Virus record (IMG/VR): IMGVR_UViG_3300045997_000077
Span: 1 to 29,971 of that record
DNA from: a virus
Length of the DNA stretch: 29,971 nucleotides
Strand: one strand, 5' to 3'
The notes under the pieces are model-generated. The model was not told the DNA's origin and searched no databases. It saw nothing but the letters and a program-made list of their open reading frames with translations. This document shows positions 1 to 29,971 of this stretch, piece after piece. A program made the position numbers and the translations under genes. Numbering within the stretch: position 1 is the stretch's first letter; each line of letters opens with the position of its first letter.

Positions 1-2
1 CT

Positions 3-461: not shown

Positions 462-994
462 AGATCGATATTCCTTTATCCCTTTTGCGAAGACTATATA
501 TAGATGAACAAAAGAGTATCACTGATATTGCCAAAATGTATGGATATTCACTCTCAACAATTCGCAGCAGGCTTCTTGAACACGGACTATTGAGATCAAT
601 AAATGAGTCCTTAAAGATTGCTCGTTTACAAGGAAAATTCCCTTCTAAACGTGGGATAGCTATAGGTCCAATGTCATCTGCCACAAAGAAGAAGCTGTCG
701 TTATCGCAGTTTGCAAACGGTGAGCGAAAAGCAAAAGGAATATCTTTGAAGCCAGCCGGTTATTTTGAAATAACTAGAGGAAATAACAAAGGCAAGTTGT
801 TGCATAGGGTCATCATGGAGCAGCATTTAGGGAGGACGCTGAGACATGATGAAATTGTCCATCATAAAGACAGAAACAGGGAGAACAATGACATATCCAA
901 TTTACAAGTAATGACAAAGAAGCAACATAGCCGTCATCATGGTTTAGAGAATTTAACTTTTCGGAAAAGGAAAAAAAATGGCCAGTTTATGTAA
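458..994 (+). CDS. HNH endonuclease with N-terminal helix-turn-helix (probable homing-type)
   Basis: This 178-residue protein has two recognisable parts. Residues 15-45 resemble a helix-turn-helix (ITDIAKMYGYSLSTIRSRL), which would bind DNA. Residues 116-161 form an HNH nuclease core with His135-His136, Asn148 and further His at 157 and 160. The middle (about 50-95) is basic and looks like a modular DNA-binding linker of homing enzymes. The gene starts in an ATGA overlap with Gp157 and ends inside ssb. It is clearly AT-rich (about 37 percent GC over 481-660, against about 60 percent for a line of the upstream gene), which suggests recent acquisition. The last ten residues are encoded by the ssb leader itself. 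A free-standing homing endonuclease is the likeliest role; a packaging-associated HNH is less likely away from the terminase. Confidence 0.87.
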   Translation: MKIDIPLSLLRRLYIDEQKSITDIAKMYGYSLSTIRSRLLEHGLLRSINESLKIARLQGKFPSKRGIAIGPMSSATKKKLSLSQFANGERKAKGISLKPAGYFEITRGNNKGKLLHRVIMEQHLGRTLRHDEIVHHKDRNRENNDISNLQVMTKKQHSRHHGLENLTFRKRKKNGQFM

Positions 995-1391
995 AGTCAT
1001 GCTTATAGGGAATATCGGGCACGATCCTGAAATGCGTTACATGCCTAGCGGCGAAGCTGTCTGCAACTTCTCGATGGCAACATCGGAAGAATGGAAAGAC
1101 AAGAATACGGGCGAGAAGAAGGAAGACACTTCATGGCACCGCATCAGCATGTTTGGCAAACTTGCCGAGATCGGCGAGAAGTATCTCAAGAAAGGAATGC
1201 AGGTTTACATCGAAGGCCGACTGAAATATCGGGAATACACCGACTCTGCTGGCGTCACCAAGATGTCGGTCGAAATCAAGGCCGATACGATGAAGATGCT
1301 GTCCAGCAAGTCATCGCAGGACTCTGCTGCCAAAGTCGCACCATCTAAAGCGGCCGAGCAGGAAATCATCGAAGACGATATCCCTTTCTAG
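978..1391 (+). CDS. ssb: Single-stranded DNA-binding protein
   Basis: An OB-fold SSB of 137 residues. It opens with MASLCKVMLIGNIGHDPEMRY, the classical SSB strand 1 and loop, followed by the conserved WHRI and GMQVYIEGRL strands (residues about 51-85). A flexible linker rich in Ser, Ala and Lys leads to the acidic tip EDDIPF, which in bacterial SSBs recruits repair and replication partners. It coats single-stranded DNA during phage replication and recombination, which agrees with NinB downstream. The start at 978 is preceded by a CGGAAAAGGAA leader and overlaps the HNH gene by 17 bases. A weak hairpin terminator follows the stop. Confidence 0.97.
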   Translation: MASLCKVMLIGNIGHDPEMRYMPSGEAVCNFSMATSEEWKDKNTGEKKEDTSWHRISMFGKLAEIGEKYLKKGMQVYIEGRLKYREYTDSAGVTKMSVEIKADTMKMLSSKSSQDSAAKVAPSKAAEQEIIEDDIPF

Positions 1392-1415
1392 CATAAGCAA
1401 GTAGCGCAAATAAGG

Positions 1416-1450
1416 ATGGTCAGAATTAGAAACTCTGATCATTCTTTTTA
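1416..1450 (+). terminator. Weak intrinsic terminator after ssb
   Basis: Bases 1416-1424 pair with 1434-1442 (core GGTCAGA with TCTGATC, one G-T pair), leaving a 9-base loop, and a T-rich stretch CTTTTTATT follows. The stem is AT-rich and so weak. It lies between the ssb stop and the -35 box of the next promoter, a sensible place to separate two transcription units. Confidence 0.45.
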
Positions 1451-1479
1451 TTGACTATGTGAGAATTTGTGGCTAGAAT
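1451..1479 (+). promoter_or_regulatory. Sigma-70-type promoter for the small-gene operon
   Basis: A TTGACT -35 box (1451-1456) and a TAGAAT -10 box (1474-1479) are separated by exactly 17 bases. Both are one mismatch from consensus. The initiation point would fall near 1486, about 40 bases before the first small start codon at 1527. It probably drives the plus-strand run 1527-4950. No obvious operator palindrome overlaps it. Confidence 0.75.
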
Positions 1480-1526
1480 CCTTACATACCAGCTAACATT
1501 AACTACCTACGGAAAAGGAAACAACC

Positions 1527-1610
1527 ATGAAAACAATCACCACTATCACCAAATATTACATCCTAGTCGAAACTGAAGACGGGATGCTGATATCAATCAC
1601 CACACTCTAA
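1527..1610 (+). CDS. 27-residue microprotein
   Basis: A short reading frame of 27 codons, Thr/Ile-rich at the start and then acidic (LVETEDGML). It is the first frame after the strong promoter and has the same leader as its neighbours: GGAAAAGGAAACAACC directly before the ATG. That conserved leader is the main support for real translation. There is no signal peptide or recognisable domain. It could be a small regulator, or a leader peptide for the downstream cistrons. Confidence 0.5.
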   Translation: MKTITTITKYYILVETEDGMLISITTL

Positions 1611-1632
1611 TTACTTTCGGAAAGGAACAATC

Positions 1633-1833
1633 ATGTCACATCTGATCAGACTCGAAACCACCAAGACTTATGCGACTGAGGCCAATGCAGTGAAGGCCTT
1701 TGAAAAGATCTTCGGCAACGACGAAATTCGCTACATCATTCTTCGGACAGAAGATGGTCGGTTCTTTCCTGCTGCGCTCGGACAATCTGCCATTCAAGCT
1801 GGCGTCCATTTCCACTTTCATGTTCTTGGCTAA
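1633..1833 (+). CDS. Small phage protein of unknown function (66 aa)
   Basis: Sixty-six residues with a CGGAAAGGAACAATC leader before the ATG. It begins MSHLIRLETTKTYATEANAVKAFEKIFG, continues with a short beta-rich part (IRYIILRTEDGRFFPAALG) and ends in HFHFHVLG. The layout suggests a small alpha/beta fold; proteins of this look recur in phages of Burkholderiales-type hosts, but I know no function. It sits between the microprotein and an exported protein with 20-35 base gaps, so it is one cistron of the same operon. Confidence 0.75.
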   Translation: MSHLIRLETTKTYATEANAVKAFEKIFGNDEIRYIILRTEDGRFFPAALGQSAIQAGVHFHFHVLG

Positions 1834-1865
1834 TCAACTTCACATATCTTCGGAAAGGAAACATC

Positions 1866-2186
1866 ATGAACTTCTCAAAACAACTCCTGATACCACTCGT
1901 GATTTCGACAGCAGTCTTCGCGTCTGACTGCGCCCGTGCAGGAGATCTTTCCTGCCTCCAGATGAGCCAAGTAGCAGTTCTTGCAAATACAGCAAAGGCA
2001 CAAGACATGCCTGAAAGAGTAGTGAAACTGATGATTGCGGACAGTTTCAAAGACGCAACCATGAGAAAACAGGCAACTGCTGTTTCAGACTTCATCTATG
2101 CCAGCGAAACTTTTACCGATGATCAAGCCAAAAAGAAAGTCCTGCTTCTCTGCATGGAAGCCCGTCATGGCAAGACCATCAAGTAA
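1866..2186 (+). CDS. Exported (periplasmic) protein of unknown function
   Basis: The 106-residue product starts with a Sec-type signal peptide: Lys near the N-terminus, a hydrophobic core LLIPLVISTAVFA, and a likely cleavage after the ARA at residues 23-25. The mature part is about 80 residues, helical and charged, with two Cys (LSCLQM near the new N-terminus and LLCMEAR near the end) that could form a disulphide in the periplasm. The leader CGGAAAGGAAACATC decides the start. A phage-encoded periplasmic protein in an early operon could act on the host envelope or on superinfection, but nothing in the sequence fixes this. Confidence 0.75.
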   Translation: MNFSKQLLIPLVISTAVFASDCARAGDLSCLQMSQVAVLANTAKAQDMPERVVKLMIADSFKDATMRKQATAVSDFIYASETFTDDQAKKKVLLLCMEARHGKTIK

Positions 2187-2212
2187 TCACTCAACCACGG
2201 AAAGGAACTGAC

Positions 2213-2533
2213 ATGAGCAAATTTTCCCTCGAACTATTCTCGGATTTTCACAAGGATGTCTATGGCTTCCGTCCGAACATGCACCACCCGTTCTACACGA
2301 TGTCCGACGCGGAGCGACAGGCTGAATGGGAATACATGCAAGTCACGCTTCGTTCCAATGAAGAACGCAGCAGAAAAGAGGAACAGATAGCAATCGAACT
2401 TTTCGAGCGCAACATTCCGCATGGCAAACGCGACGACTACATCGCAGATCTCATCGAGAACGAAGGATTGGGCGACCCAGACTTTGCCTGTTTCCTCCGA
2501 AACTTGCCCTACGGATACCTGACCAAGAAATGA
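2213..2533 (+). CDS. Hypothetical acidic phage protein (106 aa)
   Basis: A 106-residue, strongly charged protein with the leader CGGAAAGGAACTGAC. An aromatic N-terminal part (FSLELFSDFHKDVYGF) is followed by a charged helix (residues about 38-75) and a C-terminal segment DLIENEGLGDPDFACFLRNLPYGY. No catalytic motif, membrane segment or signal peptide is seen. The stop overlaps the NinB start by ATGA, so the two are translationally coupled, and a role in the same recombination or replication setting is possible but unproven. Confidence 0.7.
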   Translation: MSKFSLELFSDFHKDVYGFRPNMHHPFYTMSDAERQAEWEYMQVTLRSNEERSRKEEQIAIELFERNIPHGKRDDYIADLIENEGLGDPDFACFLRNLPYGYLTKK

Positions 2534-2955
2534 AGAAGTTTTTCATTCTCCGTGACGACGGGGCGTATGAACTCATGCGCTCCTTCATCGCTGCAAACTG
2601 GAAAACATGCGCCTCTGCAGATGCTCCATTAGCAGTCGCCATTTCGCCTTATAAGCCCTCTAGGACGCTGGAACAGAACAATCTGATGTGGGCATTGCTT
2701 GAGGAAGTTTCGCAGCAGGGATGGGTCGCCAAGCGCAAGTTTTCATCAGAGGTTTGGCACGAGCATTTCAAGAAATCCTTTTTACCAGATGTCAATTCTA
2801 AAGGAGACTTGAAATGGACATTACTGCCCGACGGATCACGCATTTGCACCATGAGTACCACGCGCCTCAATACACAGGAAATGTCCGACTACTTGTCGGA
2901 AATCATCGCTTTTGCAACTACTGAGTTAGGAGTCAAGTTCCATGAAAAAGGATAG
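2530..2955 (+). CDS. ninB: NinB/Orf-family recombination protein
   Basis: The 141-residue product fits the NinB (lambda Orf) family, a recombination mediator that binds single-stranded DNA and SSB and helps load recombinase. Family marks are the central R-T-L-EQNN-MWALL segment (residues about 48-58), the K-FS-EVWHEHFKK stretch (about 71-84), the polar S-T-RL-TQEMSDYL segment (about 110-122), and a length close to lambda Orf (146). It starts in an ATGA overlap with the previous gene. An ssb gene 1.1 kb upstream supports a shared recombination function. Confidence 0.9.
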   Translation: MKKFFILRDDGAYELMRSFIAANWKTCASADAPLAVAISPYKPSRTLEQNNLMWALLEEVSQQGWVAKRKFSSEVWHEHFKKSFLPDVNSKGDLKWTLLPDGSRICTMSTTRLNTQEMSDYLSEIIAFATTELGVKFHEKG

Positions 2956-3112
2956 CTGGATGTCTATACGTCTGGCAGATGACTTGAAGGAACGCATCAA
3001 GATGTCTGCCGAAAACGATCACAGGTCACTTGCTTCGCAAGTGGTTTATCTGGTGATTTTTGCTCTGACCATTATCGAGGATAACAACCATGGGAAATCT
3101 CGGAAGGCTTGA
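2942..3112 (+). CDS. Arc-like ribbon-helix-helix DNA-binding protein
   Basis: Fifty-six residues. Positions 6-45 match the ribbon-helix-helix layout: a short strand WMSIRLAD, a first helix DLKERIKMSAENDHR, a Ser at the turn (SLASQ), and a second hydrophobic helix VVYLVIFALTII. Such dimers bind operators through the paired strands. AGGAG lies nine bases before the ATG, and the start is inside the last 14 bases of ninB. The last residues are basic. The target could be an early or late phage promoter. Confidence 0.7.
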   Translation: MKKDSWMSIRLADDLKERIKMSAENDHRSLASQVVYLVIFALTIIEDNNHGKSRKA

Positions 3113-3248
3113 AGTGTTGATCGAACTTGCGATCAAAAACCAGAACTATCCACGGGCGCTGAGTTACCTGAATCAAGCTGGCGCGGAACTCAATAAGCTG
3201 ACCTTCGAAGTCGTCAAAAAGATGGAGGCAAACCATGAGCCTGTGTGA
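3090..3248 (+). CDS. Small helical hypothetical protein (52 aa)
   Basis: A 52-residue frame that overlaps both neighbours: its ATG is inside the Arc-like gene and its end runs into the next start at 3235. The protein looks like two or three amphipathic helices (RLEVLIELAIKN, RALSYLNQAGAELNKLTFEVVKKME). No domain is recognised. The tight overlap and consistent codon use support it as coding, but the size keeps this moderate. Confidence 0.55.
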   Translation: MGNLGRLEVLIELAIKNQNYPRALSYLNQAGAELNKLTFEVVKKMEANHEPV

Positions 3249-3507
3249 GTACAAAATGGATTTGGGCGAAGCGGGCGAGTTCGACTTCATCATCGAGTAC
3301 GCCTACTTTCCTGCCAGCACTGCACGCTGGCCGGGGGAGAAGGATGAACCAGAATGCGTCGTCGTCGAGAGCATCACTTTCGGCGGCATCGACTGGACGA
3401 GCCAGTTAGCCCCCATCATCCGCAAGGACGAACGGTTTCTCAAGGCGTGCCGCGACGAGTGGCTCGATGAGGTGGCAGAACATCAGATGGCTCTGGCGGG
3501 GGTGTGA
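3235..3507 (+). CDS. Hypothetical acidic protein (90 aa)
   Basis: Ninety residues, acidic, with a beta-looking first half (GEFDFIIEYAYFPAS and CVVVESITFGGIDWTSQL) and a helical end (DERFLKACRDEWLDEVAEHQ). Similar small proteins sit in phage accessory trains, but no function is known to me. GGAGG (3222-3226) lies in front of the ATG. Its stop overlaps the next start (GTGA), so it is co-translated with its neighbours. Confidence 0.65.
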   Translation: MSLCEYKMDLGEAGEFDFIIEYAYFPASTARWPGEKDEPECVVVESITFGGIDWTSQLAPIIRKDERFLKACRDEWLDEVAEHQMALAGV

Positions 3508-3698
3508 TGCCACTATATTACGTCAGCCTGTTCGCAGTTATCGACGGTGAGGGTTTCAACATTCATACCGACATCCATGCGGTCAATGGTGCAGAGGCCG
3601 TAATGCGCGTTGTGCAGTCCCTCAACAACCCAGATGGTCACATCCAGCGCCTGACCGTGGTGTGCCGTCCTGATTACGATGGAGTAACAATCAAATGA
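3504..3698 (+). CDS. Hypothetical small protein (64 aa)
   Basis: Begins with GTG at 3504 in a GTGATG cluster; the ATG at 3507 is an equally good start. The product is a compact alpha/beta sequence: strand PLYYVSLFAVID, an HTDIHAVNGAEAVMRVVQSLN helix, then strand RLTVVCRPD. This order resembles small phage proteins with a ferredoxin-like or double-stranded-RNA-binding-like outline, but that is only an impression. It joins the next gene by ATGA. Confidence 0.6.
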   Translation: MMPLYYVSLFAVIDGEGFNIHTDIHAVNGAEAVMRVVQSLNNPDGHIQRLTVVCRPDYDGVTIK

Positions 3699-3883
3699 CA
3701 GATACACCAGAACAACGCAAGCAGAAAGCCAAGGACGCCGGTTACACGAATCCGTTTTGTGCCGCGTGCGCGAACCTGAGTTCGCCCTCCAGCAAAACGT
3801 GCCGACAGTGCATTGCTGCCACGCCGAATTTTACGAAAGCTGCACGACAGTTTTTGGAAGGATGGAAAGGAACCATGCAATGA
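3695..3883 (+). CDS. Small zinc-ribbon-like protein (62 aa)
   Basis: Sixty-two residues with two Cys pairs, CAAC (about residues 22-25) and CRQC (about 36-39). The 10-residue spacing between them is what a short zinc-binding knuckle would need. The rest is basic and helical. The gene starts in an ATGA overlap and ends in another, in the middle of a closely packed train. The metal-binding idea rests on the four cysteines only. Confidence 0.55.
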   Translation: MTDTPEQRKQKAKDAGYTNPFCAACANLSSPSSKTCRQCIAATPNFTKAARQFLEGWKGTMQ

Positions 3884-4038
3884 GAAAGTGGTTTTTGAAA
3901 TTCCTGCGCTTCGGCCTGTGTGTCGACGAGTATTGCGCCCGTGTCAGCGGCAACCATGAGTTCCGTGCCGACAGCGTGCGGCGCATTGCCGAGATCGACC
4001 GTGAGCTTGACCTGTTGTCTTTGGAGGGGCGAGGATGA
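3880..4038 (+). CDS. Small hypothetical protein (52 aa)
   Basis: Read from the ATG at 3880, which overlaps the previous stop as ATGA; an ATG at 3757 in the same frame would only lengthen it into the upstream gene. The 52 residues begin with a basic hydrophobic segment (MRKWFLKFLRFGL), perhaps membrane-associated, followed by a charged amphipathic helix (VRRIAEIDRELDLLSLEG). No family is recognised. Confidence 0.5.
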   Translation: MRKWFLKFLRFGLCVDEYCARVSGNHEFRADSVRRIAEIDRELDLLSLEGRG

Positions 4039-4280
4039 CTGAAGAACAACTCACTAACCACATGGCACTAGTCGCATCACTTGAGAAAGAACGCGACACA
4101 TGGCGTCAGAAAGCCATCGAGCTTGGGTTGGAGACATCTGCAAAAGACAAACTGTTGAAGCAGTGCAAAGACACGCTTGAGGTACTAGCTAAGTTAGGTA
4201 ATGGAAACGCATACGGAAATAGTCGAGGAAACGAGATTGCCATACGAGCACTCGCCGCAATCGAGAAGGAGGGGCTGTGA
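4035..4280 (+). CDS. Hypothetical coiled-coil protein (81 aa)
   Basis: Eighty-one residues. The first 50 are a charged helix with coiled-coil character (LVASLEKERDTWRQKAIELGLE), then comes the segment LGNGNAYGNSRGNEIAIRALAAI, a glycine/asparagine patch followed by a helix of a kind often seen in Ea22-type accessory proteins. It starts in an ATGA overlap and its stop overlaps the GTG of the Ea22-like gene, so the two are probably made together. Confidence 0.6.
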   Translation: MTEEQLTNHMALVASLEKERDTWRQKAIELGLETSAKDKLLKQCKDTLEVLAKLGNGNAYGNSRGNEIAIRALAAIEKEGL

Positions 4281-4630
4281 AAATCACCGAACTCGAAGCA
4301 CTGGCGAAAGCTGCAACACCGGGGCCGTGGGAAACAGTTACAGGGCGAACCGCTGTTGGTAGACCGTTTGCCGTTGTTGTCTCTAACAACGTAGAGATTT
4401 GTGATGAACCAAGCGTTGATGTTCCACTTAGTAATAAAGCATTTTTAGATGGGAACGCATATTACATCGCCGCAGCCAACCCCGAAACAATCCTATCCAT
4501 GATCTCTCTGCTGCGGGAGATGGGAGAGGCATTGGAAACGGCTGATAAATATCTTTATCCAGACGACATGCACGATGAAGATGTGGTTCAGCTAAAGTCG
4601 GTCTTTGAAAAATATAAGGAGACGACATGA
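4277..4630 (+). CDS. Ead/Ea22-like phage protein
   Basis: A 117-residue protein with the signature of the Ead/Ea22-like group: an N-terminal LEALAKAATPGPWE, a central beta part, then the YIAAANPETILSMISLLREM helix. Lambda Ea22 lies in an early accessory region and has been tied to regulation of development, but the function of most members is unknown. The start is GTG, supported by GAGAAGGAGGGG just upstream and by overlap with the previous stop. The next gene begins in its ATGA. Confidence 0.75.
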   Translation: MKITELEALAKAATPGPWETVTGRTAVGRPFAVVVSNNVEICDEPSVDVPLSNKAFLDGNAYYIAAANPETILSMISLLREMGEALETADKYLYPDDMHDEDVVQLKSVFEKYKETT

Positions 4631-4950
4631 GTCCATGGACAGTTCTGGTGGCATCGCTGACCGACAAGCCCGAGAATCATCCAGTGTCTAAAACACATTG
4701 TCTTGAGAATCAGAGAGCGGCGACCGAGGCAGCACGGGCAAAGGCGGCTATCCGCAAGCAGGAACGGTGGGAGGCAGTCAGGGCGGTGCTGGGGATGCAC
4801 CCTGCCGGTCGCACGCTGGATGAACTGGTGCAGGATGTTCCCTACACCAAAACCTATCTGAGCAACATACTCAATCGCATGATGTCGAAGGGGCTGGTGC
4901 GCTTCACCAAGGCAATGAACAGCAACGTACGACACTGGAAGCTATCTTGA
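4627..4950 (+). CDS. Winged-helix DNA-binding-like protein
   Basis: A 107-residue protein. Residues 48-107 read as a winged helix: helix RWEAVRAVLGMHPAG, helix LDELVQDV, recognition helix KTYLSNILNRMMSKG, then a wing LVRFTKAM...VRHWKL. The first 45 residues are polar and helical. It is the last gene of the rightward operon and converges on the tail fibre gene. A transcription regulator is the natural reading; the fold is inferred from pattern, not shown. Confidence 0.6.
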   Translation: MSPWTVLVASLTDKPENHPVSKTHCLENQRAATEAARAKAAIRKQERWEAVRAVLGMHPAGRTLDELVQDVPYTKTYLSNILNRMMSKGLVRFTKAMNSNVRHWKLS

Positions 4951-18767: not shown

Positions 18768-19442
18768 TCACATCGGACAAGTGATAGTGGTAATGCCCTT
18801 GTCGATTTCTTTGCGGCATTCTTTCGATTGCGGCGCAGCGATCACGGGCGCAGGAGATACAGCGGCAACAGGTTGTGGCGCAGCTTCGACGGTGCCGGGA
18901 GCAGGGACGCCAACCTTGTCGCAAATGGTCTTCAATGCCTTGAATGCCGTTTCAGTAGCTTCCAGACATTCGAGGCGCGCCAAGGCGATGTTCCAATGCT
19001 GGGCTGCTTGCGGATCGCCGGATGATTGGCTAATGCGTGCATTCTCGCGCCAGTTACACTTGAGGTCTTCGACGGAGCCGCCGCCGGAAACACCGACGCC
19101 GACAACACTAAGGCCACCGGATAACGCGATGCGGCAGGGTGCTGTCACACCCATTGGCGGCGCATAGACCATCGGCACGGTTTCCAAAGTGCTGGTGCCG
19201 GAATGCTTTAGGCTACCGGAGTAATTCAGGTTTTGCGTTTGCGAGGACGGGACTGAACTGTTGAAGATGATGTTCTGTGCGTTTCCCTGCAAGGCAGCGG
19301 CCCCTGAGTAAGTGCTTCCAGATATAGCCTGTGCTCCAGAAGTTGAAGTTGCTCCTGAGAGTGAAGCTGCGTTTGCAGATGTTTGGGCAAAAGAGGGCGT
19401 GGCAAAAGCCGCAACAGCCAAGAAGAGAAATCGACGCATCAT
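18768..19442 (-). CDS. Exported Ser/Ala/Gly-rich protein (224 aa)
   Basis: A signal peptide is clear: MMRR, a hydrophobic core FLFLAVAAFA, and a likely cleavage at SFA-Q (residue 20). The mature N-terminal half is low-complexity (Ser, Ala, Gly, Thr, Asn). The second half is more ordered: APPMGVTAPCRIALSGG, a V-VGVSGGGSVE beta patch, a Cys-Asn-Trp-Arg-Glu motif, then a helix WNIALARLECLEATETAFKALKTICDK with several Cys. A Pro/Ala linker and a Cys-containing tail (ECRKEIDKGITTITCPM) follow. The export signal is odd inside the structural operon. Related phage proteins have this layout, but their function is unknown to me. GGAGAC lies before the start, with a UUCG hairpin upstream. Confidence 0.75.
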   Translation of the reverse strand: MMRRFLFLAVAAFATPSFAQTSANAASLSGATSTSGAQAISGSTYSGAAALQGNAQNIIFNSSVPSSQTQNLNYSGSLKHSGTSTLETVPMVYAPPMGVTAPCRIALSGGLSVVGVGVSGGGSVEDLKCNWRENARISQSSGDPQAAQHWNIALARLECLEATETAFKALKTICDKVGVPAPGTVEAAPQPVAAVSPAPVIAAPQSKECRKEIDKGITTITCPM

Positions 19443-19459
19443 TTTTAGTCTCCATAGCA

Positions 19460-19477
19460 GGGAGGCCGAAGCCTCCC
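19460..19477 (-). other. UUCG-loop hairpin upstream of the exported-protein gene
   Basis: A perfect 7-base-pair stem (19460-19466 with 19471-19477) around TTCG closed by a C-G pair, a very stable RNA hairpin. It lies 18 bases before the start codon at 19442 and just upstream of the GGAG ribosome-binding site. No T-run follows, so a processing or translation-control role is more likely than termination. Confidence 0.6.
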
Positions 19478-19495
19478 CACATTTTCAGTTTATGT

Positions 19496-19876
19496 TCAGG
19501 GATTCAGACCGAAGCCGATAGTTTGGAAACCGCCGGTCGCTGCGCCGAAACCGCCAGAACCGCCAGTGGCAGTGGAACCGCCCGTGGCGAAGCCGAGGCT
19601 ACCGGAAGCAGTTTGACTGCCGCCGAAGGCTTCGGAGACTTGACCGACGGTAACGCCAGCAGGGCTGATCGTGCCGCCAGCCTGCGAAGCCTGACCGGTC
19701 TGAGCTTGGCCGGAAGTTGCGTTGAGGCCGAGCAAAGCAGATTGCGAGGTCGAGGTCGAACCGGCCAGCGAACCACCAGCAGCAGTCGCATTGATCGAGC
19801 CAGAGAACAGGTTGCCGTCGATGGCGAAGGCGCTGGAAGATGCCGCCACGAGTAGTGCTACGAAAAATTGCTTCAT
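19496..19876 (-). CDS. Exported low-complexity Gly/Ser/Ala/Thr protein (126 aa)
   Basis: The signal peptide is MKQFFVALLVAASSSAFA, with a probable cut at SSAFA-I (residue 18). The mature part of about 108 residues is almost entirely Gly, Ser, Ala, Thr, Gln and Asn, with no Cys, no Trp and one aspartate near the new N-terminus; its end is GFQTIGFGLNP. It is predicted to be unfolded or fibrous, not an enzyme. AAGGAGAC precedes the ATG. It lies between a lipoprotein and a larger exported protein in the same operon, and the three look like one cassette. Confidence 0.7.
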   Translation of the reverse strand: MKQFFVALLVAASSSAFAIDGNLFSGSINATAAGGSLAGSTSTSQSALLGLNATSGQAQTGQASQAGGTISPAGVTVGQVSEAFGGSQTASGSLGFATGGSTATGGSGGFGAATGGFQTIGFGLNP

Positions 19877-19940
19877 TTGAGTCTCCTTGCAAGGATGCGA
19901 ACTGATGGAAAGTATGAAAGGCTGTTCGCGTAGCCCATCA

Positions 19941-20239
19941 TTATTGAAATCCTCCGCCAGTTTTGTTAGTGGTGGGAGAATAACTTTGTGTCATTGAGTT
20001 GGTCGTAGTCTGCGCTTCACTGGTATTCAATGATCCGCCTGTTCCCTGCGCCCTGACGCCTTCGCTGTTGTTTACAGTCGTGGTTGCCGTGCAGAACCAT
20101 AAGCAGGACGGCATAACCCGTTGCAACAGCAAAGCACGCGGATGCTCCTTGTTGGCCGTTTCCGCCTGATCGATAGTGATAGTCCGTTCGGCGACGGAGG
20201 TGCAACCAGCCAGCAAAGGAAGAAACATCAGTGCCCACA

Positions 20240-20240
<1 letters not shown>
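19941..20240 (-). CDS. Small lipoprotein (99 aa)
   Basis: Starts at 20240 in a TGATG overlap with the fibre stop; an ATG five codons further upstream is also possible. A lipoprotein signal is evident: MWALMFLPLLAGC, with the lipobox Cys at residue 13, so the product would be lipid-anchored in the envelope. The mature chain has a short helical part (AERTITIDQAETANKEHP), a segment with two Cys (MPSCLWFCTATTTV), then a Thr/Ser/Gln/Asn-rich tail. A role in an envelope lysis or exclusion step is conceivable, but it lacks a spanin's usual layout, so I leave function open. Confidence 0.65.
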
Positions 20241-23816: not shown

Positions 23817-25157
23817 TTACCAAGCGACTGCGGTCAAGGTCTGAACTGCACCCGGACGGAGCGCGGCCCAATCGAGTTCCCAGACGCAACGCAAGGCTGC
23901 GCTGTTGGTCTGGAACAGCGAACGGACGGGTTTGGCTGGCGCGGCGGCGTCATCAATGATGGGCAGCGGTGTGGTGTCTTCCTCATGGATGGTTGCCACT
24001 TCGGTGCCCATGAAGCGCGGAGCACCGCCAGCGAAGGCGACTTCGGCGGCATCAATCAAGAACACGACTGCGGAGGGAACGTTGGTGCTGGTGACAACCG
24101 GATAGCCCATCAGCGTACCTGCGGCAGCTTCGGGGAAGGCGGGAGTGCCAGCGGCAGTGACAGCCAACTGCACACCGATCCAGCGCGCCGGATTCATGAT
24201 CCACACCGGACGACGGCCAAGGTTCTGACCCATCAACTGCTGCAAGCGTCCGCGCACATCGGTGATGATGTTGGCGGTAGTAGCACCAGCAGAGGCGGTG
24301 GTGTCAGCGCCCGAAGCATACGTCTGGAGACCAGCAGGAACGGTAATCGAGCCAGCAGTTGCGCCTAGGAAGGCGGTATCGAGCGCGGTAGCGGTGTCTT
24401 GAATCATCGCGTCACGAACGATGGCTTCGATCTGAGGCGTGCTGCGCTCCATCAGTTCAGCCGTCCAAGTGCCGATTACACCCATAGACTTCGGGGTGAG
24501 GATATGCGCGGTCAGTCCTAATGCACCGACCCTGATGGCGGCTCCCTCTGCACGGAATGCACCAGCCAGATTCGGCGTGGCACCATTACGCTGAGGAACC
24601 TTGATGCTGGCAGCGCCAGCGAACTCATAGCGAGTCAGCGGCAGACGCGGCACGACGGATTCGCCACGCAGGATGTCCATGAAGGCACCATACGATTCGC
24701 GGGTAAGTTCTTGCGCCCAACCAGCAACGTTGGTCATGGCTGGATCTTGCGCAGCTTTGGTGGTCATACCGGCAACGGCCTTGATAACTTCGTTGTCGCC
24801 ATAACGCTGCTCGATGGCTTGTGCCAGCGGGATGCGCTTGACGTAAGCATCGAAGGTGCAAAGCGCAGACTTGATCAGCAGATCAGCTTTGTCGCTGTCT
24901 TTGACCTTGGCGGCTGGATTGCTGTTGATGGCCGGAGCACCATTGCTGGCAGCACGGGCGACGGACTTGCTGATCGCGGCTTCGGCGGCTTTCAGGCGGT
25001 CGAGTTCGGCGGTAGCTTTTTCGACGGTGGCGGTGGCAGCTTGCACGGCGTCTTGCGACTCTTGGCTGTCATCCATCTTGGAGGTCAAGTCGACCAGTAC
25101 GTCACGGGCATTGACCAATTCGGTCTGCTTGGCGACGATTTGCTCATTCAAGTTCAT
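23817..25157 (-). CDS. Major capsid protein (HK97 fold)
   Basis: A 446-residue capsid protein. Residues 1-80 are a coiled coil (EQIVAKQTELVNARDVLVDLTSKMDD), corresponding to the delta scaffold domain that the protease removes; the next Pro/Asn/Gly-rich stretch (about 75-95) is a likely cleavage zone. The shell part has the HK97 run: SVVPRLPLTRYEFAGAASIKVPQRNG, a KSMGVIGTWTAELMERSTPQIEAIVRDAM helix, the A-domain with ARGRLQQLMGQNLGRRPVWIMNPARW, and GTLMGYPVVTSTNVPSA. The start overlaps the protease stop by ATGA, as expected. It is followed by a strong terminator. Confidence 0.95.
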   Translation of the reverse strand: MNLNEQIVAKQTELVNARDVLVDLTSKMDDSQESQDAVQAATATVEKATAELDRLKAAEAAISKSVARAASNGAPAINSNPAAKVKDSDKADLLIKSALCTFDAYVKRIPLAQAIEQRYGDNEVIKAVAGMTTKAAQDPAMTNVAGWAQELTRESYGAFMDILRGESVVPRLPLTRYEFAGAASIKVPQRNGATPNLAGAFRAEGAAIRVGALGLTAHILTPKSMGVIGTWTAELMERSTPQIEAIVRDAMIQDTATALDTAFLGATAGSITVPAGLQTYASGADTTASAGATTANIITDVRGRLQQLMGQNLGRRPVWIMNPARWIGVQLAVTAAGTPAFPEAAAGTLMGYPVVTSTNVPSAVVFLIDAAEVAFAGGAPRFMGTEVATIHEEDTTPLPIIDDAAAPAKPVRSLFQTNSAALRCVWELDWAALRPGAVQTLTAVAW

Positions 25158-25720
25158 TTGATTGCTCCTGTATTCAGGTAAAGCGTTTCGAGGGAGGTTT
25201 GGAGCGCGGCAACCGCCCGCTTCCTGATGTCTTCCTGCGATTCGCCCAGCGGGGCGGCAGGGAGATCAAAACTTTTGATTGCAGTGATTGATGCTTCGGC
25301 ATTGGCCGGAATGGTTACAGCCGATAACTCAAGCCAAGACCATTCCTTGAACCTTATGCCGTTGGTGCCTTTAATCGGCTCAGACTTGAGCGCCCGAAAT
25401 CCAATAGACAATCCGCGCACCAACCCTGCCTTGATTTGCATCCACGCCTTTTCGACGTAACCAAGGCCGGATTCCTTAGGAATATGCGCCTCGATCTCGA
25501 TGCCTTTGTCGGTAATGATTGCAGCAGTCACATGCCCGATAGGCGATGCGTGGTCATGCTGAGATAGAAGCGGAATAGGGAGATCGAACTTCGCCCCCTT
25601 TGGCTCAACGATGTCGCCTGTGCGATCTGTCGATGGGGTGCTTGCAATGCCGCGCAGGATGCGCTGTTCTTCGTCCAGACTTTTGATCGTTAGCGTCGAC
25701 CAACTTTTGATCTGATCCAT
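25154..25720 (-). CDS. Prohead protease (HK97 gp4-like, peptidase U35)
   Basis: A 188-residue serine protease that trims the capsid delta domain during head maturation. Catalytic marks are a histidine in SQHDHASPIG (His55 or His57), Ser105 in GLSIGF, and Glu131 in WLELSAVTIPAN. The C-terminus is variable. The start ATG (25720) is chosen for the strong AAGGAGG seven bases upstream; the longer open frame runs into the promoter region. It is the first gene of the leftward morphogenesis operon and follows a sigma-70-like promoter at 25776-25803. Confidence 0.93.
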   Translation of the reverse strand: MDQIKSWSTLTIKSLDEEQRILRGIASTPSTDRTGDIVEPKGAKFDLPIPLLSQHDHASPIGHVTAAIITDKGIEIEAHIPKESGLGYVEKAWMQIKAGLVRGLSIGFRALKSEPIKGTNGIRFKEWSWLELSAVTIPANAEASITAIKSFDLPAAPLGESQEDIRKRAVAALQTSLETLYLNTGAIK

Positions 25721-25775
25721 CCGGCAACCTCCTTGCAGAGAGGCCGGTATACCGTCGCCTATGAAATTACCCACG

Positions 25776-25803
25776 ATTGTATAAGCAAACAATGAATAGT
25801 CAA
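25776..25803 (-). promoter_or_regulatory. Leftward sigma-70-like promoter for head and tail genes
   Basis: On the minus strand TTGACT (25803-25798) and TACAAT (25781-25776) are 16 bases apart. They lie about 55 bases upstream of the protease start. The box spacing and closeness to consensus are good. It would make the head and tail operon independent of terminase transcription across the inverted island. Confidence 0.6.
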
Positions 25804-25816
25804 TAGAAAAAATAAG

Positions 25817-25845
25817 TTGACTTAGTTTTTGTGATGTGTAACAAT
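25817..25845 (+). promoter_or_regulatory. Rightward sigma-70-like promoter for the inverted island
   Basis: TTGACT (25817-25822) is followed 16 bases later by TAACAA (25839-25844), preceded by TG. It lies some 27 bases upstream of the HNH start, which has TAGGAGGT as ribosome-binding site. Its -35 box is the mirror image of the leftward -35 box, only 13 bases away, so one regulator could affect both. Confidence 0.6.
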
Positions 25846-25871
25846 CCTCATCTCATCATAGGAGGTCAAAC

Positions 25872-26720
25872 ATGAACTACCAACGCATCTACAACGACTT
25901 TATTGCGGATAGACGCATCAAGGAACAAACGCTCACTGGTTATAGCGAAAAACACCACATCCTCCCACGCTCGTTGGGAGGATTGGATAGTGCAGAAAAC
26001 CTAATCAGGATTAGTGCAGATGATCACCTTATGGCACACATGCTCCTAGCTAAGATTCATGGTGGAATAATGTGGCACGCACTTAATAGCATGGCATTGC
26101 CACATAGGAATTCGATGCGGTCATCTCTAACGACTACAAAAAGGTTGCGCTTAGCGTATGCCATGCGCGCAGCTAATTACGGAGCGGCGGTAAAAGTTCA
26201 ATTTAATGATGCTGAATTTCGCCAAAGGCACGCTGATGCAACATCAAAAGGAACAGCCAAAGCATTTACTGATCCGGTCACGAAGGCCAGACATCAAGCT
26301 GCATTGCTTGCATCCAGAAAATCACGCGGTATTGGTGTCTTCAGACAGGATGCGCACGTTAAAGCATACAAACAACATTTACTGAAGATTAGACGCAAAG
26401 AAGTCGGCGCAGAAAATGGGAAAACTCTTAAGTCCAAATATGCTGCTGGAGAATTGATTGGATTTAGGGCGCATCAGCCATCTTCGTCTGTTCTTTCAGA
26501 AGCTCAAAAGAAGCGCGCCAAGAACGAATCTGTAGATTTGCGACGCGCTCGGGGAATCGCAATGCACACGCCAGAGGCTATTGCAAAGCGAAAAGAGACT
26601 ATACGGTCTTCTGAAGCATGGGCAGCGTTTCAAGAACGTAATCGCCAGCCTAAGCCAAATCAATCTGGAGAGAACCATTGGCGCGCTAAAAAACGGCGCG
26701 CTGAAATGGAGGCCGCATGA
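25872..26720 (+). CDS. HNH homing endonuclease-like protein (282 aa)
   Basis: A 282-residue protein with an HNH nuclease at residues 1-65: YSEKHHILPRSLGG (His28, His29), then SAENLIRISADDHLMAHMLLAKIH with Asn43, His52 and His56. This variant, with a HHILP start, is seen in phage and mobile homing enzymes. Residues about 90-282 are basic and hold several short DNA-binding-like modules (AKAFTDPVTKARHQAAL, EAIAKRKETIRSSEAWAAF, and an RARR-type end), as in NUMOD3-carrying endonucleases. It has the only TAGGAGGT leader and is the first gene of the inverted island. It is likely a selfish endonuclease; a packaging-assistant HNH is a second possibility because the terminase is 2.3 kb away. Confidence 0.82.
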   Translation: MNYQRIYNDFIADRRIKEQTLTGYSEKHHILPRSLGGLDSAENLIRISADDHLMAHMLLAKIHGGIMWHALNSMALPHRNSMRSSLTTTKRLRLAYAMRAANYGAAVKVQFNDAEFRQRHADATSKGTAKAFTDPVTKARHQAALLASRKSRGIGVFRQDAHVKAYKQHLLKIRRKEVGAENGKTLKSKYAAGELIGFRAHQPSSSVLSEAQKKRAKNESVDLRRARGIAMHTPEAIAKRKETIRSSEAWAAFQERNRQPKPNQSGENHWRAKKRRAEMEAA

Positions 26721-26884
26721 AAACCAAACCACCAAGCTGGCAGAAAGAACCCACTGCTCAACGCCAGTCAGAACTTCGCGCCAGACGCAAAGAAGCCGGC
26801 CTAGTACCTATTCAGGTGTGGGTTCCGAAGGAACGCGCCGCAGAAATACGCGAGGCTATTGCCAAGATGGTTGAGGCGGGTTAG
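26717..26884 (+). CDS. Small ribbon-helix-helix-like protein (55 aa)
   Basis: Fifty-five residues joined to the HNH gene by ATGA, with GGAGG upstream. Residues 15-53 run: a basic helix (QSELRARRKEAGL), a beta strand PIQVWVP, then a helix ERAAEIREAIAKMVEAG. This strand-helix pattern, including the V-P-I-Q-V-W-V-P element, resembles small MazE/DUF3018-like antitoxins and ribbon-helix-helix operator binders. No toxin gene lies next to it, so a regulator of the phage or HNH gene is more likely. It shares its layout with the small protein at 28786. Confidence 0.6.
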   Translation: MKTKPPSWQKEPTAQRQSELRARRKEAGLVPIQVWVPKERAAEIREAIAKMVEAG

Positions 26885-27073
26885 GCAGATTTTTCTTCTG
26901 CTCATCCCTGATGTGCTTGGGAGGACGGTTTCTCGACATAGCGCACCTAAAAGAATGCAGGCAGAGCGCCCGCATAAGACCCCGCAATGGAGTGGTGGAG
27001 TAGTGCCGCCAATGTATAAGAACAAATGTGCGGTGTCAATCAAAACAAACAAAAACTTTTATACATATTTCTG

Positions 27074-27101
27074 TTGACTTATTCCTGATTACGCGTAATA
27101 T
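27074..27101 (+). promoter_or_regulatory. Island promoter with a palindrome over the -10 box
   Basis: TTGACT (27074-27079) and TAATAT (27096-27101) are 16 bases apart. The perfect 12-base palindrome ATTACGCGTAAT (27088-27099) covers the end of the spacer and four bases of the -10 box, a classic place for a repressor operator. The transcription start would lie near 27108, 40 bases before the next gene. The 189 bases upstream (26885-27073) hold no gene that I trust. Confidence 0.65.
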
Positions 27102-27149
27102 CTCATTCAGATACAGACCTTGCTGAATTACATGAGAAAGGAAACAACC

Positions 27150-27605
27150 ATGAAAACTACTACCACCACAACCGCGACCCGAGAACAGACTATCACCCGA
27201 CTCAGCTTGCTGCGTCAGATGGAACAAGAGAATCCTTGCGGCAACGGCTTTCGCTTCTACCTCGACAAAGCCATCGGATCTCATCTGTATTACGAAGGCG
27301 CGCATCCGACGAACTGGCAATCGACGCCCAAGAAGCTACGCGGCCAGATCAAGCAATCCGTCGGAGTGGTGGAACTAGTGAAAAGCGGAATATCAGACAA
27401 GGAGCTTGGCAAGCTGATCATTGCCGAACACGCCAACACGATGCGTGACATCAAAGAATTCGTCATGGCAGGTTTGTTCGATGAGGCAATCGCTGCTTAC
27501 GACGTCCGGTTCATTACAAAGGAGGAAGACTCCAGACTCAAGGCGGCTGAAAAAAACGGCGCCATCAACGGCCAGCGATACACAGTAGCGCAAGTGCTTT
27601 TTTGA
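27150..27605 (+). CDS. Hypothetical helical protein (151 aa)
   Basis: Read from the ATG at 27150, with GAAAGGAAACAACC just before it, the same leader as in the early operon; an upstream in-frame TTG is not needed. The first residues are Thr-rich (MKTTTTTTATREQ). The rest looks compact and mostly helical: TITRLSLLRQMEQENPCGNGF, HPTNWQSTPKKLRGQIKQSVGVVELVKSG, KELGKLIIAEHANTMRDIKEFVMAGLFDEAI. The NWQSTPKKLR segment and the DKELGKLI helix suggest a nucleic-acid or protein-binding role, but no family is recognised. Confidence 0.65.
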   Translation: MKTTTTTTATREQTITRLSLLRQMEQENPCGNGFRFYLDKAIGSHLYYEGAHPTNWQSTPKKLRGQIKQSVGVVELVKSGISDKELGKLIIAEHANTMRDIKEFVMAGLFDEAIAAYDVRFITKEEDSRLKAAEKNGAINGQRYTVAQVLF

Positions 27606-27644
27606 TTAGTCTCATTCATTACCACAACGAAAAAGGAGATTGAA

Positions 27645-27968
27645 ATGACAAACATGAAACGGATTGCCATCATTACTTCGGCAATTTACCTGTCTGGCTG
27701 CGCAGCGGTTCAACAGCGGCAGTATGACTGCCAGAAGGTCGCAGCAGCGCAGTATGACTATTGCCTCAAAGAGAATGAGCGTATAGCCGCAGAGAATCAG
27801 CAAGCGGCAAACAACGCTACTGCCGGAAACGTCTTGCTGGGCGTCGGCGCATTGCTGCTGATCGGCGCTGCCGCAGCCAATGCATCGCGTCCTACGACAC
27901 ATCACTCGAATACGACCTGCACGCATAGCAGGTATTCATCTTCATGTTCAAGCTGGTCCAACTACTAA
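27645..27968 (+). CDS. Lipoprotein with glycine-zipper membrane segment (107 aa)
   Basis: The start has AAAAAGGAG seven bases upstream. MTNMKRIAIITSAIYLSGC is a lipoprotein signal with the lipobox Cys at residue 19. A charged part with two further Cys follows (VQQRQYDCQKVAAAQYDYCLKENERIAAENQQAA), then a small-residue hydrophobic stretch (NVLLGVGALLLIGAAAANA, about 62-80) like a glycine-zipper transmembrane segment. The tail is rich in Ser, His and Cys. A lipid anchor plus membrane segment suits a superinfection-exclusion or envelope protein. Confidence 0.7.
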   Translation: MTNMKRIAIITSAIYLSGCAAVQQRQYDCQKVAAAQYDYCLKENERIAAENQQAANNATAGNVLLGVGALLLIGAAAANASRPTTHHSNTTCTHSRYSSSCSSWSNY

Positions 27969-27976
27969 GGAGACAA

Positions 27977-28225
27977 ATGATGTCAGGCACTATCAATCAC
28001 TATGCAGCTATTTCAGACTTGCCAAATAAAGACAACGAGTTCTTCTTCACCTTGATGGCTGACGACAGGGGCATCACTGAATTGAAGTTTCGCAAGAATG
28101 CGGCTCCATTATTCAGCACCTTGCTGGTTGCACTCGAGCACATCAACAGGTCTTTCGATAAGCCATATCCAACCGTCGGCGATTTTCTGCGCAATCTAGC
28201 AGATCTTGCCGACACGCTTGAATAG
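27977..28225 (+). CDS. Hypothetical protein (82 aa)
   Basis: Starts at 27977 or 27980 (ATGATG), with AAGGAGAC in front; the frame open from 27944 overlaps the lipoprotein and is not used. The protein has a beta half (SDLPNKDNEFFFTLMADDRGITELKFRKN) and a helical end (FSTLLVALEHINRSFDKPYPTVGDFLRNLADLADTLE). It has no Cys or membrane segment. No family is known to me. Confidence 0.6.
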   Translation: MMSGTINHYAAISDLPNKDNEFFFTLMADDRGITELKFRKNAAPLFSTLLVALEHINRSFDKPYPTVGDFLRNLADLADTLE

Positions 28226-28234
28226 GAAGTCAGC

Positions 28235-28360
28235 ATGGAAACTATCGGAACTGTCTTTGCGCTGCTGATCGTGCTTTACCTCTGGTTGTTCGATGACGAG
28301 CCTGAATCAGCCGCAGTCTTGGCAGTCTTTCTCGCAATCTATACCGTTTATCTGCACTGA
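28235..28360 (+). CDS. Small membrane protein (41 aa)
   Basis: A 41-residue frame with AGGAAG before the ATG at 28235. Two hydrophobic helices (TVFALLIVLYLWLF and SAAVLAVFLAIYTVYL) are joined by an acidic turn DDEPE. This is the layout of a two-helix membrane protein such as a small holin or exclusion protein, but 41 residues is short for a holin. It sits between two genes of the same island with tight spacing. Confidence 0.5.
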   Translation: METIGTVFALLIVLYLWLFDDEPESAAVLAVFLAIYTVYLH

Positions 28361-28388
28361 TTTACCCACCTACGAAAAGGAGATCCAC

Positions 28389-28784
28389 ATGAAAACCACA
28401 ATGTCCATCATCGCTTCCCTCGTTCTGACCGCTGGTGCCGCGCAAGCTGCGCCTAACGAAGTCTTCGAAACCACCACCGGCGTTAAGGTGACGATCTATG
28501 ATGCCAGCATCACCACGCTAACGAAGAATGCACGCGGTGATTTTGAAGTGAATTACACTTCAGAGTACGTAGGCAAGAAATTCGACAAAGACCGTTTCCA
28601 GAATGCTGCTACTTGCGCCGTAAATGGCGGCTATGTTGGCATACTGAATGACGATGGTTCTGTGTACAAGCAAGCGCCGTGGGTGCCGAATGGCCCGTCA
28701 TTGTGGGACCAGATCGCTACTCATGTCTGCATCCGCAGCATCGAGAAGACCAAGACTTCCGCAGTCAAGAAAACAGGCATCTGA
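28389..28784 (+). CDS. Exported protein of unknown function (131 aa)
   Basis: Read from the ATG at 28389, seven bases after AAAAGGAG. The signal peptide is MKTTMSIIASLVLTAGAAQA-A (cut near residue 20). The mature part of about 110 residues is beta-rich (EVFETTTGVKVTIYDASITTLTK, FEVNYTSEYVGKKFD) with two Cys (TCAVNGG and HVCIRSIEK), likely paired in the periplasm. Charged residues increase toward the end. No domain is recognised. It adds to the exported products of this phage. Confidence 0.7.
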   Translation: MKTTMSIIASLVLTAGAAQAAPNEVFETTTGVKVTIYDASITTLTKNARGDFEVNYTSEYVGKKFDKDRFQNAATCAVNGGYVGILNDDGSVYKQAPWVPNGPSLWDQIATHVCIRSIEKTKTSAVKKTGI

Positions 28785-28785
28785 C

Positions 28786-28986
28786 ATGACTTCTTCATCT
28801 CGGAAACAATCACTCCGTGTTGCCCAAGCTGCGTTTCGCTCTCGCAAAGCTGCGGCTGGCGAATCTGAGGTTAGAGGCATCTTTGCCCCAACTGCCATGC
28901 ATGTTGCCATCAAGAAAGCGGTGGCAGAGATGCTAGCCAGCGACAGCAAAGGGAAGACTGACGGAGTTATCCAATCCAGCAACTAA
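28786..28986 (+). CDS. Small basic protein, related in layout to the 26717 gene product (66 aa)
   Basis: Begins one base after the previous stop. Residues 12-52 read basic helix (RVAQAAFRSRKAAAGES), strand EVRGIFAP, then helix TAMHVAIKKAVAEMLASD. The segments FRSRKAAAG and IKKAVAEML line up with LRARRKEAG and IREAIAKMV of the 55-residue protein at 26717. A strand-helix DNA-binding dimer of ribbon-helix-helix type is plausible. The last 20 bases overlap the terminase 3' end on the other strand. Confidence 0.6.
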   Translation: MTSSSRKQSLRVAQAAFRSRKAAAGESEVRGIFAPTAMHVAIKKAVAEMLASDSKGKTDGVIQSSN

Positions 28987-29971
28987 CATCGACAACATTG
29001 CGCTTCATGGCAGTTCCGATTGCCATGAGGCTTGCAATGATCCCGTCGATCCTTCCTGTTGCCTTTGATTTGTCGCACTTTCGGTTGCCAGCAGGATCTG
29101 GAGTAATGATGGCATTTGACGCACACCATGTCAGGACAGGATTGCCATCATGCTTCAGTTTCTCATCGACAAGCTGCCTTTCGAATTCCTCGATGGCAGG
29201 CGACATCGATTTGTATCCTTGGCCGAACTGCACTATCGGAAGCGTTATTCCTTCGTCGTTCAGGACCATTTTGAAGTCTTCTATGCGCCACATGTCGAAA
29301 CCGATTTCAGCAACGTCGTAACTCGAGCAGATCTCAGCAATGCGTCGTGCCACATAAGTCTTGTTGACTGCTTTCCCGCTGATTGTCTCTAAGTGTCCGT
29401 CTTTTTTCCAGACATCATAAGGCACTCGATCTTTTTCCGACTTATCCTGTATGGTATCTCCGGGCAACCAGAACCACGCCTTGAGTCGCCACATCTCGTC
29501 ATTCTTGTCAGGCGGGAAAATTAGCGCAAACGCAGTCAAGTCTTGCGTGCTTGATAGGTCAAGTCCTCCAAAGCATTGCCTGTTGTACAAGTAGGATTCA
29601 TCAAAGTTTGTGTCTTTCGCGCCATGCCATGCCTCAGACGAGATCCACGGATTCGCTGCATCAACCCACTGGCAGAAGTTCAGCCGCCTGACAATGGATT
29701 CTTTGGATGGCATGCCTTTCGCTTGTGCAACCTGCTCCCGTATGTACTTGAGTCCGGGCAATCCATATTGCAGTGAAGGGTTTGCTTTATACCAGCACGT
29801 TTCGTCATTGAATGGATCGTCATCTTCGTCCAGACCGCTTACGAATGAAAAGAAGGAGTCGTCTTCCAAGATCCCGTTGCTGACTTTCTTTCCATAGTCG
29901 TGATACTGATAGCAGATCGATTGCCGGTTCGCGCCTGAGTTTGTGATCATGAAGACGATTGCCTGCTTTCT
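28967..29971 (-). CDS. terL: Terminase large subunit, 3' part (runs off the right edge)
   Basis: The C-terminal 334 codons of an HK97-type terminase large subunit, which pumps and cuts the DNA. The nuclease domain has the expected marks: FGGLDLSSTQDLTAFALIFP with the catalytic Asp, then IGFDMWRIEDFK, and IITPDPAGNRKCDKSKATGRIDGIIASLMAI with the closing Asp. The ATPase part lies mostly outside; the frame continues unbroken to base 29971, with RKQAIVFMITNSGANRQS just inside the edge. Strand and position show that the terminase is on the same strand as the head genes but separated from them by the opposite-strand island. Confidence 0.95.
   Translation of the reverse strand, partial: RKQAIVFMITNSGANRQSICYQYHDYGKKVSNGILEDDSFFSFVSGLDEDDDPFNDETCWYKANPSLQYGLPGLKYIREQVAQAKGMPSKESIVRRLNFCQWVDAANPWISSEAWHGAKDTNFDESYLYNRQCFGGLDLSSTQDLTAFALIFPPDKNDEMWRLKAWFWLPGDTIQDKSEKDRVPYDVWKKDGHLETISGKAVNKTYVARRIAEICSSYDVAEIGFDMWRIEDFKMVLNDEGITLPIVQFGQGYKSMSPAIEEFERQLVDEKLKHDGNPVLTWCASNAIITPDPAGNRKCDKSKATGRIDGIIASLMAIGTAMKRNVVDVSCWIG

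What the first reader, a model, noticed from the sequence alone, without database searches (positions are those of the whole stretch)
25721..28986. Inverted accessory island between terminase and head genes
A 3 kb block of small plus-strand genes splits a minus-strand packaging and head module. It carries its own promoters (25817 and 27074), two exported or lipid-anchored proteins, a small membrane protein, an HNH endonuclease and two small DNA-binding-like proteins. Such independently transcribed genes are typical of morons expressed from a prophage, and could include new exclusion or defence functions.
Basis: partly seen in the sequence, partly recalled or inferred. Interest (0 to 1): 0.65.

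Follow-up and report, generated by a model that had tools for sequence, protein, structure and literature searches.

The report
Reversed cargo genes in phage head operon
A phage of unknown host carries a 3.2 kb pocket of backward-facing extra genes between its DNA-packaging enzyme and its capsid genes; related phages have nothing there, or different extra genes (including a toxin-antitoxin pair), so this is a swappable cargo site of a known kind whose own genes are new and of unknown function.

Summary
Eight plus-strand genes (25872-28986) split the minus-strand terL and prohead protease genes. It is not one block. A minus-strand mini-gene (26856-26939) with its own promoter sits inside it, and relatives carry that mini-gene directly before the protease. 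This leaves two modules: A, an HNH homing-type endonuclease plus a MazE-like DNA-binding protein; and B, six small genes including a lipoprotein, a membrane hairpin and an exported protein, whose last gene overlaps the terL stop codon. In about half of 100 dereplicated related junctions terL and protease lie within 100 bp; 23 carry sense-strand genes and 5 (window included) carry reversed genes. Four truncated junctions also show reversed genes. Other reversed cargo includes a Gp49-type toxin with its antidote (L227) and a six-gene operon with a lipoprotein in an integrase-bearing phage (L222). Two near-identical relatives share sequence only from the -35 box of the head promoter onward. Best reading: a moron-type accessory pocket behind the head promoter, probably transcribed independently of the late genes. 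Expression in the lysogen and exclusion or defence activity are untested. Four module-B proteins searched widely had no detectable relatives, so their function rests on anatomy alone.

The parts
28967..29971 (-). terL, large terminase C-terminal part (cut by contig end); left flank of the pocket in transcription order
   Evidence: PF20441 E 1.4e-45; phrog_9 E 2.6e-98
28786..28986 (+). g8, 66 aa basic protein; CDS overlaps the terL stop by 20 bp (convergent)
   Evidence: gene call; weak RHH-like resemblance to g2
28389..28784 (+). g7, 131 aa exported protein (signal peptide ...TAGAAQA/APN)
   Evidence: sequence and gene call; no family; no relatives
28235..28360 (+). g6, 41 aa membrane protein, two hydrophobic segments
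   Evidence: hydropathy, gene call
27977..28225 (+). g5, 81-82 aa protein, unknown
   Evidence: gene call; no relatives
27645..27968 (+). g4, 107 aa lipoprotein (lipobox LSGC) with a second Gly-rich hydrophobic segment
   Evidence: sequence; no relatives
27150..27605 (+). g3, 151 aa, first gene of module B
   Evidence: gene call; no relatives; single-sequence model pLDDT 36, unusable
27074..27101 (+). promoter-like site for module B (TTGACT-16-TAATAT), perfect 12-bp palindrome ATTACGCGTAAT at 27088-27099 over the -10
27011..27039 (-). promoter-like site of the head module (TTGACA-17-TACATT), divergent from module B
   Evidence: equivalent promoters in L004-L007
26856..26939 (-). mini-gene MSRNRPPKHIRDEQKKNLPNPPQPSWQ, counterpart of the mini-gene before the protease in L004-L006 and L089
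26717..26884 (+). g2, 55 aa MazE-like / ribbon-helix-helix-type protein (module A)
   Evidence: PF11455 E 7.8e-6, 26.2 bits against cut-off 22; similar to a 58-aa gene of the L089 pocket
25872..26720 (+). g1, 282 aa HNH homing-type endonuclease (module A)
   Evidence: phrog_655 E 2.7e-29; T4 MobD-like matches; GC3 0.42 against 0.53-0.59 in the rest
25817..25845 (+). promoter-like site for module A (TTGACT-17-AACAAT)
25776..25803 (-). promoter-like site for the protease (TTGACT-16-TACAAT), back to back with 25817
25154..25720 (-). prohead protease (Peptidase_S78), right flank
   Evidence: PF04586 E 2.7e-11; start at 25720

Best explanation
This is a moron-type accessory pocket between terL and the head genes of a phage with D3-like head-gene order. 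Shown: the head module of the nearest relatives begins with its own sigma70-like promoter site and mini-gene (L004-L006, L089, window); cargo is added on the terL side of that promoter, in this phage facing backwards, so that it runs convergent with terL and away from the head genes. Two additions are present here. Module B (g3-g8) is a six-gene operon behind its own promoter-like site, in the codon dialect of the phage. Module A (HNH homing-type endonuclease plus MazE-like protein) is a separate insertion between mini-gene and protease with foreign codon usage. Inferred: module B is transcribed by host RNA polymerase independently of late transcription, in the lysogen and/or early in infection; its lipoprotein, membrane hairpin and exported protein act at the cell envelope, most likely altering the host surface or blocking entry of competing phages; the palindrome over the -10 is a repressor site; late transcription through the pocket would shut the cargo down by antisense and collision.
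For: Empty sites: L010, L011, L012 (terL 55-57%, protease 52-54% identical) have the two genes 5-8 bp apart; phage PAJU2, with the same order terL-protease-MCP-small gene-portal, has 59 bp. Variable, often reversed cargo: L089 (nearest protease, 64-67%; three reversed genes), L222 (six reversed genes, one a lipoprotein, last gene overlapping the terL stop, HNH-like gene before the protease), L227 (reversed exported protein, Gp49-like toxin and addiction antidote with their own TTGACA-17-TACACT), L215 and L119. Boundary: L005 and L006 (94% identical over 2.1 kb) share sequence only from the -35 box of the head promoter onward. Codon usage of module B fits the phage, module A does not. The module B leader shares 21 bases with an early-gene leader at 1514. 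Temperate kin: integrase over cut-off in the records of L222, L219, L229, L234 and L215.
Against: No RNA data. Promoter count over the region is at chance. No terminator-like site follows g8 before terL. No integrase in the window, a contig that lacks the usual place of the lysogeny region. No module B protein has a recognised function or relative. Most cargo at this junction in relatives is in sense orientation (23 against 5), so reversal is not the rule.
Confidence: 0.6

Rival explanations
1. Module B is an early lytic operon (host takeover or anti-defence) that happens to sit here, not a lysogen-expressed moron.
For: Its first-gene leader matches that of an early gene at 1528; promoter-like site TTGACT as at the early site 1451; the early module also has an exported small protein at 1866-2186; GC3 0.59 against 0.57 in the early genes.
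Against: The pocket is absent or differently filled in relatives, and in L227 it holds a toxin-antitoxin pair, typical of cargo kept in a lysogen.
Confidence: 0.25
2. The whole block is a selfish homing element: the HNH endonuclease drove insertion of a segment with hitch-hiking genes.
For: phrog_655 homing endonuclease, related to T4 MobD; an HNH-like gene also sits in the L222 pocket.
Against: Module B is separated from the HNH gene by the resident mini-gene and its promoter, and differs from it in codon usage; pockets of L089 and L227 have reversed cargo without HNH.
Confidence: 0.1
3. Assembly chimera or host DNA joined into a phage contig.
For: No relative of module B found, and only one contig carries it.
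Against: Reversed operons at the same junction in independent contigs; phage-like codon usage and a leader shared with the early region; the last gene overlaps the terL stop, as in L222 and L089.
Confidence: 0.05

Closest known systems
Moron loci, e.g. STMMW_20121 of prophage ST64B (PMC7067206)
   Same: Own promoter, antisense to lytic genes, absent from relatives
   Different: Here six genes in an operon, between terL and protease; expression not measured
[quoted passage not shown]
   Same: Small (1-5 kb) high-turnover locus between two conserved phage genes
   Different: Other site; no known defence gene in the window; a toxin-antitoxin pair only in relative L227
D3-like head module, Pseudomonas phage PAJU2 (AP009624)
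   Same: Gene order terL, protease, MCP, small gene, portal; protease 56% identical
   Different: PAJU2 has 59 bp and no cargo between terL and protease; the window MCP has no match in the phage collection
T4 MobD / phrog_655 homing endonucleases
   Same: g1 N-terminal HNH part and its family profile
   Different: g1 stands next to a MazE-like gene; homing not shown; Pfam HNH below cut-off
Superinfection-exclusion lipoproteins (Cor; Ltp, PMC3952083)
   Same: g4 is a small phage lipoprotein
   Different: No similarity beyond the signal peptide

Membership tests
Moron (phage accessory element) | Inserted between genes that are adjacent in relatives | tested here: met
   Empty sites in L010-L012, PAJU2 and about half of 100 dereplicated junctions
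Moron (phage accessory element) | Own promoter | tested here: inconclusive
   Promoter-like sites at 25817 and 27074, 9 of 12; overall count at chance
Moron (phage accessory element) | Own terminator | tested here: inconclusive
   No terminator-like site between g8 and the interior of terL; the scan is a simple consensus
Moron (phage accessory element) | Expressed from the repressed prophage | not testable with these tools
   Needs RNA-seq of a lysogen; no host or isolate known
Moron (phage accessory element) | Base composition unlike the flanks | tested here: inconclusive
   Module A GC3 0.42 differs; module B 0.59 against 0.53 (late) and 0.57 (early) does not
HNH homing endonuclease (phrog_655, MobD-like) | Family profile and HNH motif | tested here: met
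   phrog_655 E 2.7e-29; Pfam HNH 16 bits, under the cut-off of 21.4
HNH homing endonuclease (phrog_655, MobD-like) | Cuts the allele that lacks it and is copied there | not testable with these tools
   Needs an assay
Cor superinfection-exclusion lipoprotein (phrog_1119) | Similarity over the mature protein | tested here: not met
   Match only at residues 4-35, signal peptide and lipobox
Known anti-phage defence systems (PADLOC) | Credible match to a defence protein model | tested here: not met
   Best 0.0044 for an HNH stretch of g1, nothing else of note

The most novel reading that the evidence does not exclude
The module B transcript, which has no recognisable terminator and whose last gene overlaps the terL stop, runs on as a long antisense RNA over terL. 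In a lysogen this RNA would block the packaging gene of an incoming sister phage, an RNA-based exclusion like STnc6030 of phage BTP1 (PMC7067206), with the encoded envelope proteins as a second layer. The same convergent overlap with terL is seen in L222 and L089.
Probability: 0.08. Interest if true: 0.7.

Novelty: new member of a known kind. Interest (0 to 1): 0.4.

Why it matters
It defines a place, the terL-protease junction of phages with D3-like head-gene order, where unrelated cargo is repeatedly dropped in behind a head promoter, sometimes facing backwards. Known cargo families there (toxin-antitoxin pairs, a cytosine-methyltransferase-like gene, lipoproteins) suggest that the unknown genes found there are worth screening for exclusion or defence. 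The bounded site makes that a simple mining task in metagenomes.

Tried and rejected
No nucleotide match of the region in the phage collection. Relatives of module B proteins: none in phages, plasmids, 399 genomes of one bacterial order (positive control) or the viral contigs (these scans find close relatives only). Structure prediction of g3 and g7 gave pLDDT 36, so no fold search was run. Nothing in Rfam. The palindrome ATTACGCGTAAT is not repeated elsewhere in the window. The MCP profile found no prophage in genome contigs. 'Antisense' calls in L112, L141, L165 and L220 were shadows of the protease gene and were discounted. Cargo proteins of different pockets are not homologous to each other, apart from g2 and the L089 58-aa protein, and a sense HTH gene shared by L215 and L227, so there is no conserved payload. 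RBS dialect (AAAGGA) separates early and late genes only weakly. I considered and dropped 'one composition-shifted island': only module A differs.

Full report
The window is a whole IMG/VR contig of 29,971 bases, linear and incomplete. Early genes (Gam-like, HNH, SSB, NinB) run on the plus strand from 1 to 4950. Structural genes run on the minus strand from terL at the right end down to 5010. The head order terL, protease, major capsid protein, small gene, portal is that of the D3-like phage PAJU2.

Checking the observation. Between the terL stop (28967) and the protease start (25720) lie 3,246 bp with eight plus-strand genes, all found by a codon-usage gene caller. Families: g1 is an HNH homing-type endonuclease and g2 a MazE-like protein. 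g4 has a lipobox, g7 a signal peptide, and g6 two hydrophobic segments. g3, g5, g7 and g8 match no family worth crediting in Pfam, PHROGs, NCBIfam or PADLOC.

The block is two modules. On the minus strand at 26939-26856 there is a 27-codon gene, MSRNRPPKHIRDEQKKNLPNPPQPSWQ. L005 and L006 have MSRNRPGRDERTDQHKSGPTPQRP..., and L004 and L089 similar RTRP/RNRP peptides, directly before the protease in sense orientation. The opening 17 bases match L006 in 16 positions and nothing else in the window comes within three mismatches. Upstream of it is the best minus-strand promoter-like site, 27039-27011. So g1-g2 (module A) sit between mini-gene and protease, and g3-g8 (module B) between terL and the head promoter, facing away from it. 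Module A has GC3 0.42, module B 0.59, late genes 0.53 and early genes 0.57, so the two modules have different histories.

Relatives. The phages nearest in terL and protease (L010-L012) have the two genes 5-8 bp apart. Scans with the protease alignment (viral contigs; genomes) and the capsid alignment gave 132 loci with both genes, 100 after dereplication: about half have at most 100 bp between them, 23 carry sense genes, and 5, including the window, carry reversed genes once four artefacts (shadows of the protease gene) are removed. The window has the largest pocket. Reversed cargo: L222, with six genes including a lipoprotein and a last gene overlapping the terL stop, and an HNH-like gene before the protease; L227, with an exported protein and a Gp49-like toxin (PF05973; phrog_3445 'toxin', E 3.7e-29) plus addiction antidote (PF21716 E 1.7e-31) behind a TTGACA-17-TACACT site; L215, one membrane protein; L119, two small genes with weak coding scores. 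Four junctions cut by contig ends also show reversed genes: L089, which has the nearest protease of all and three reversed genes, L005, L221 (TnpB-like) and the L101/L103 pair. Sense cargo includes a HicAB-like pair in L225, a DNA-methyltransferase-like gene in L118, pilin-like genes in L093-L098 and ribbon-helix-helix-like proteins; these names come from reading the sequences, not from profile searches.

The boundary. L005 and L006 are 94% identical over 2.1 kb of protease and capsid genes, and the identity begins at the base before the -35 hexamer of the head promoter. Upstream, L006 has terL and L005 a reversed repeat-protein gene. A promoter-like site between terL and protease is also seen in L004 (its -35 overlapping the terL stop), L007 and L216. 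Across 20 junctions the best promoter scores exceed dinucleotide shuffles (sum 133 against a mean of 98; 2 of 200 shuffles reach it). The junctions were chosen by hand, so this is supportive only.

How it probably works. Shown: variable cargo, reversed orientation, separate promoter-like sites, two modules. Inferred: module B is read by the host polymerase independently of late transcription and its products work at the envelope. Temperate relatives (integrase over cut-off in the records of L222, L219, L229, L234 and L215) and a toxin-antitoxin pair in the same pocket (L227) favour lysogen expression. The leader shared with an early gene keeps early lytic expression as a serious rival. The site resembles known morons and hotspots, so the kind is known. 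What is new is this pocket and its payload: g3, g4, g5 and g7 have no relatives in the annotated phages, the plasmids and 399 genomes of one order, and close-relative scans of the viral contigs with module B proteins found none either.

Limits. The gene caller is home-made. Promoter calls are consensus matches. The host is unknown. g3 and g7 could not be folded usefully. The collections may leave out very near relatives.

Noticed in passing
L101 840-1650 and 223-795; L103 1-300; L121 7389-7890 and 6110-6892: A long degenerate GC-rich array (TTGCC/TGCC units, in L101 and L103 punctuated by 'ctaaaatcc') next to a 190-260 aa gene ('KGTTPLLCNKF...' / 'GDSPLIMNRI...'), inside the terL-protease junction of apparently different phages; looks like a gene plus repeat-array cargo unit.
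   Followed up: no
window 18768-20240: Three consecutive late-strand genes encode exported or lipid-anchored, Ser/Gly/Ala-rich proteins with no PHROG match, inside the structural operon.
   Followed up: partly
window 27088-27099: Perfect 12-bp palindrome ATTACGCGTAAT over the -10 of the module B promoter-like site, one of six such palindromes in the window; a possible operator.
   Followed up: partly
L007 2185-2335: Roughly 18-bp inverted repeat between terL and protease whose second arm contains the -35 box of a strong promoter-like site.
   Followed up: no
window 23817-25157: The major capsid protein has no match among 50,697 phage records although terL and protease do; MCP-portal and terL-protease have different nearest relatives, so the head module is a mosaic.
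   Followed up: partly
window 1528-1608: A 26-codon gene (MKTITTITKYYILVETEDGMLISITTL) behind an early promoter-like site at 1451 shares its leader with module B gene g3.
   Followed up: partly
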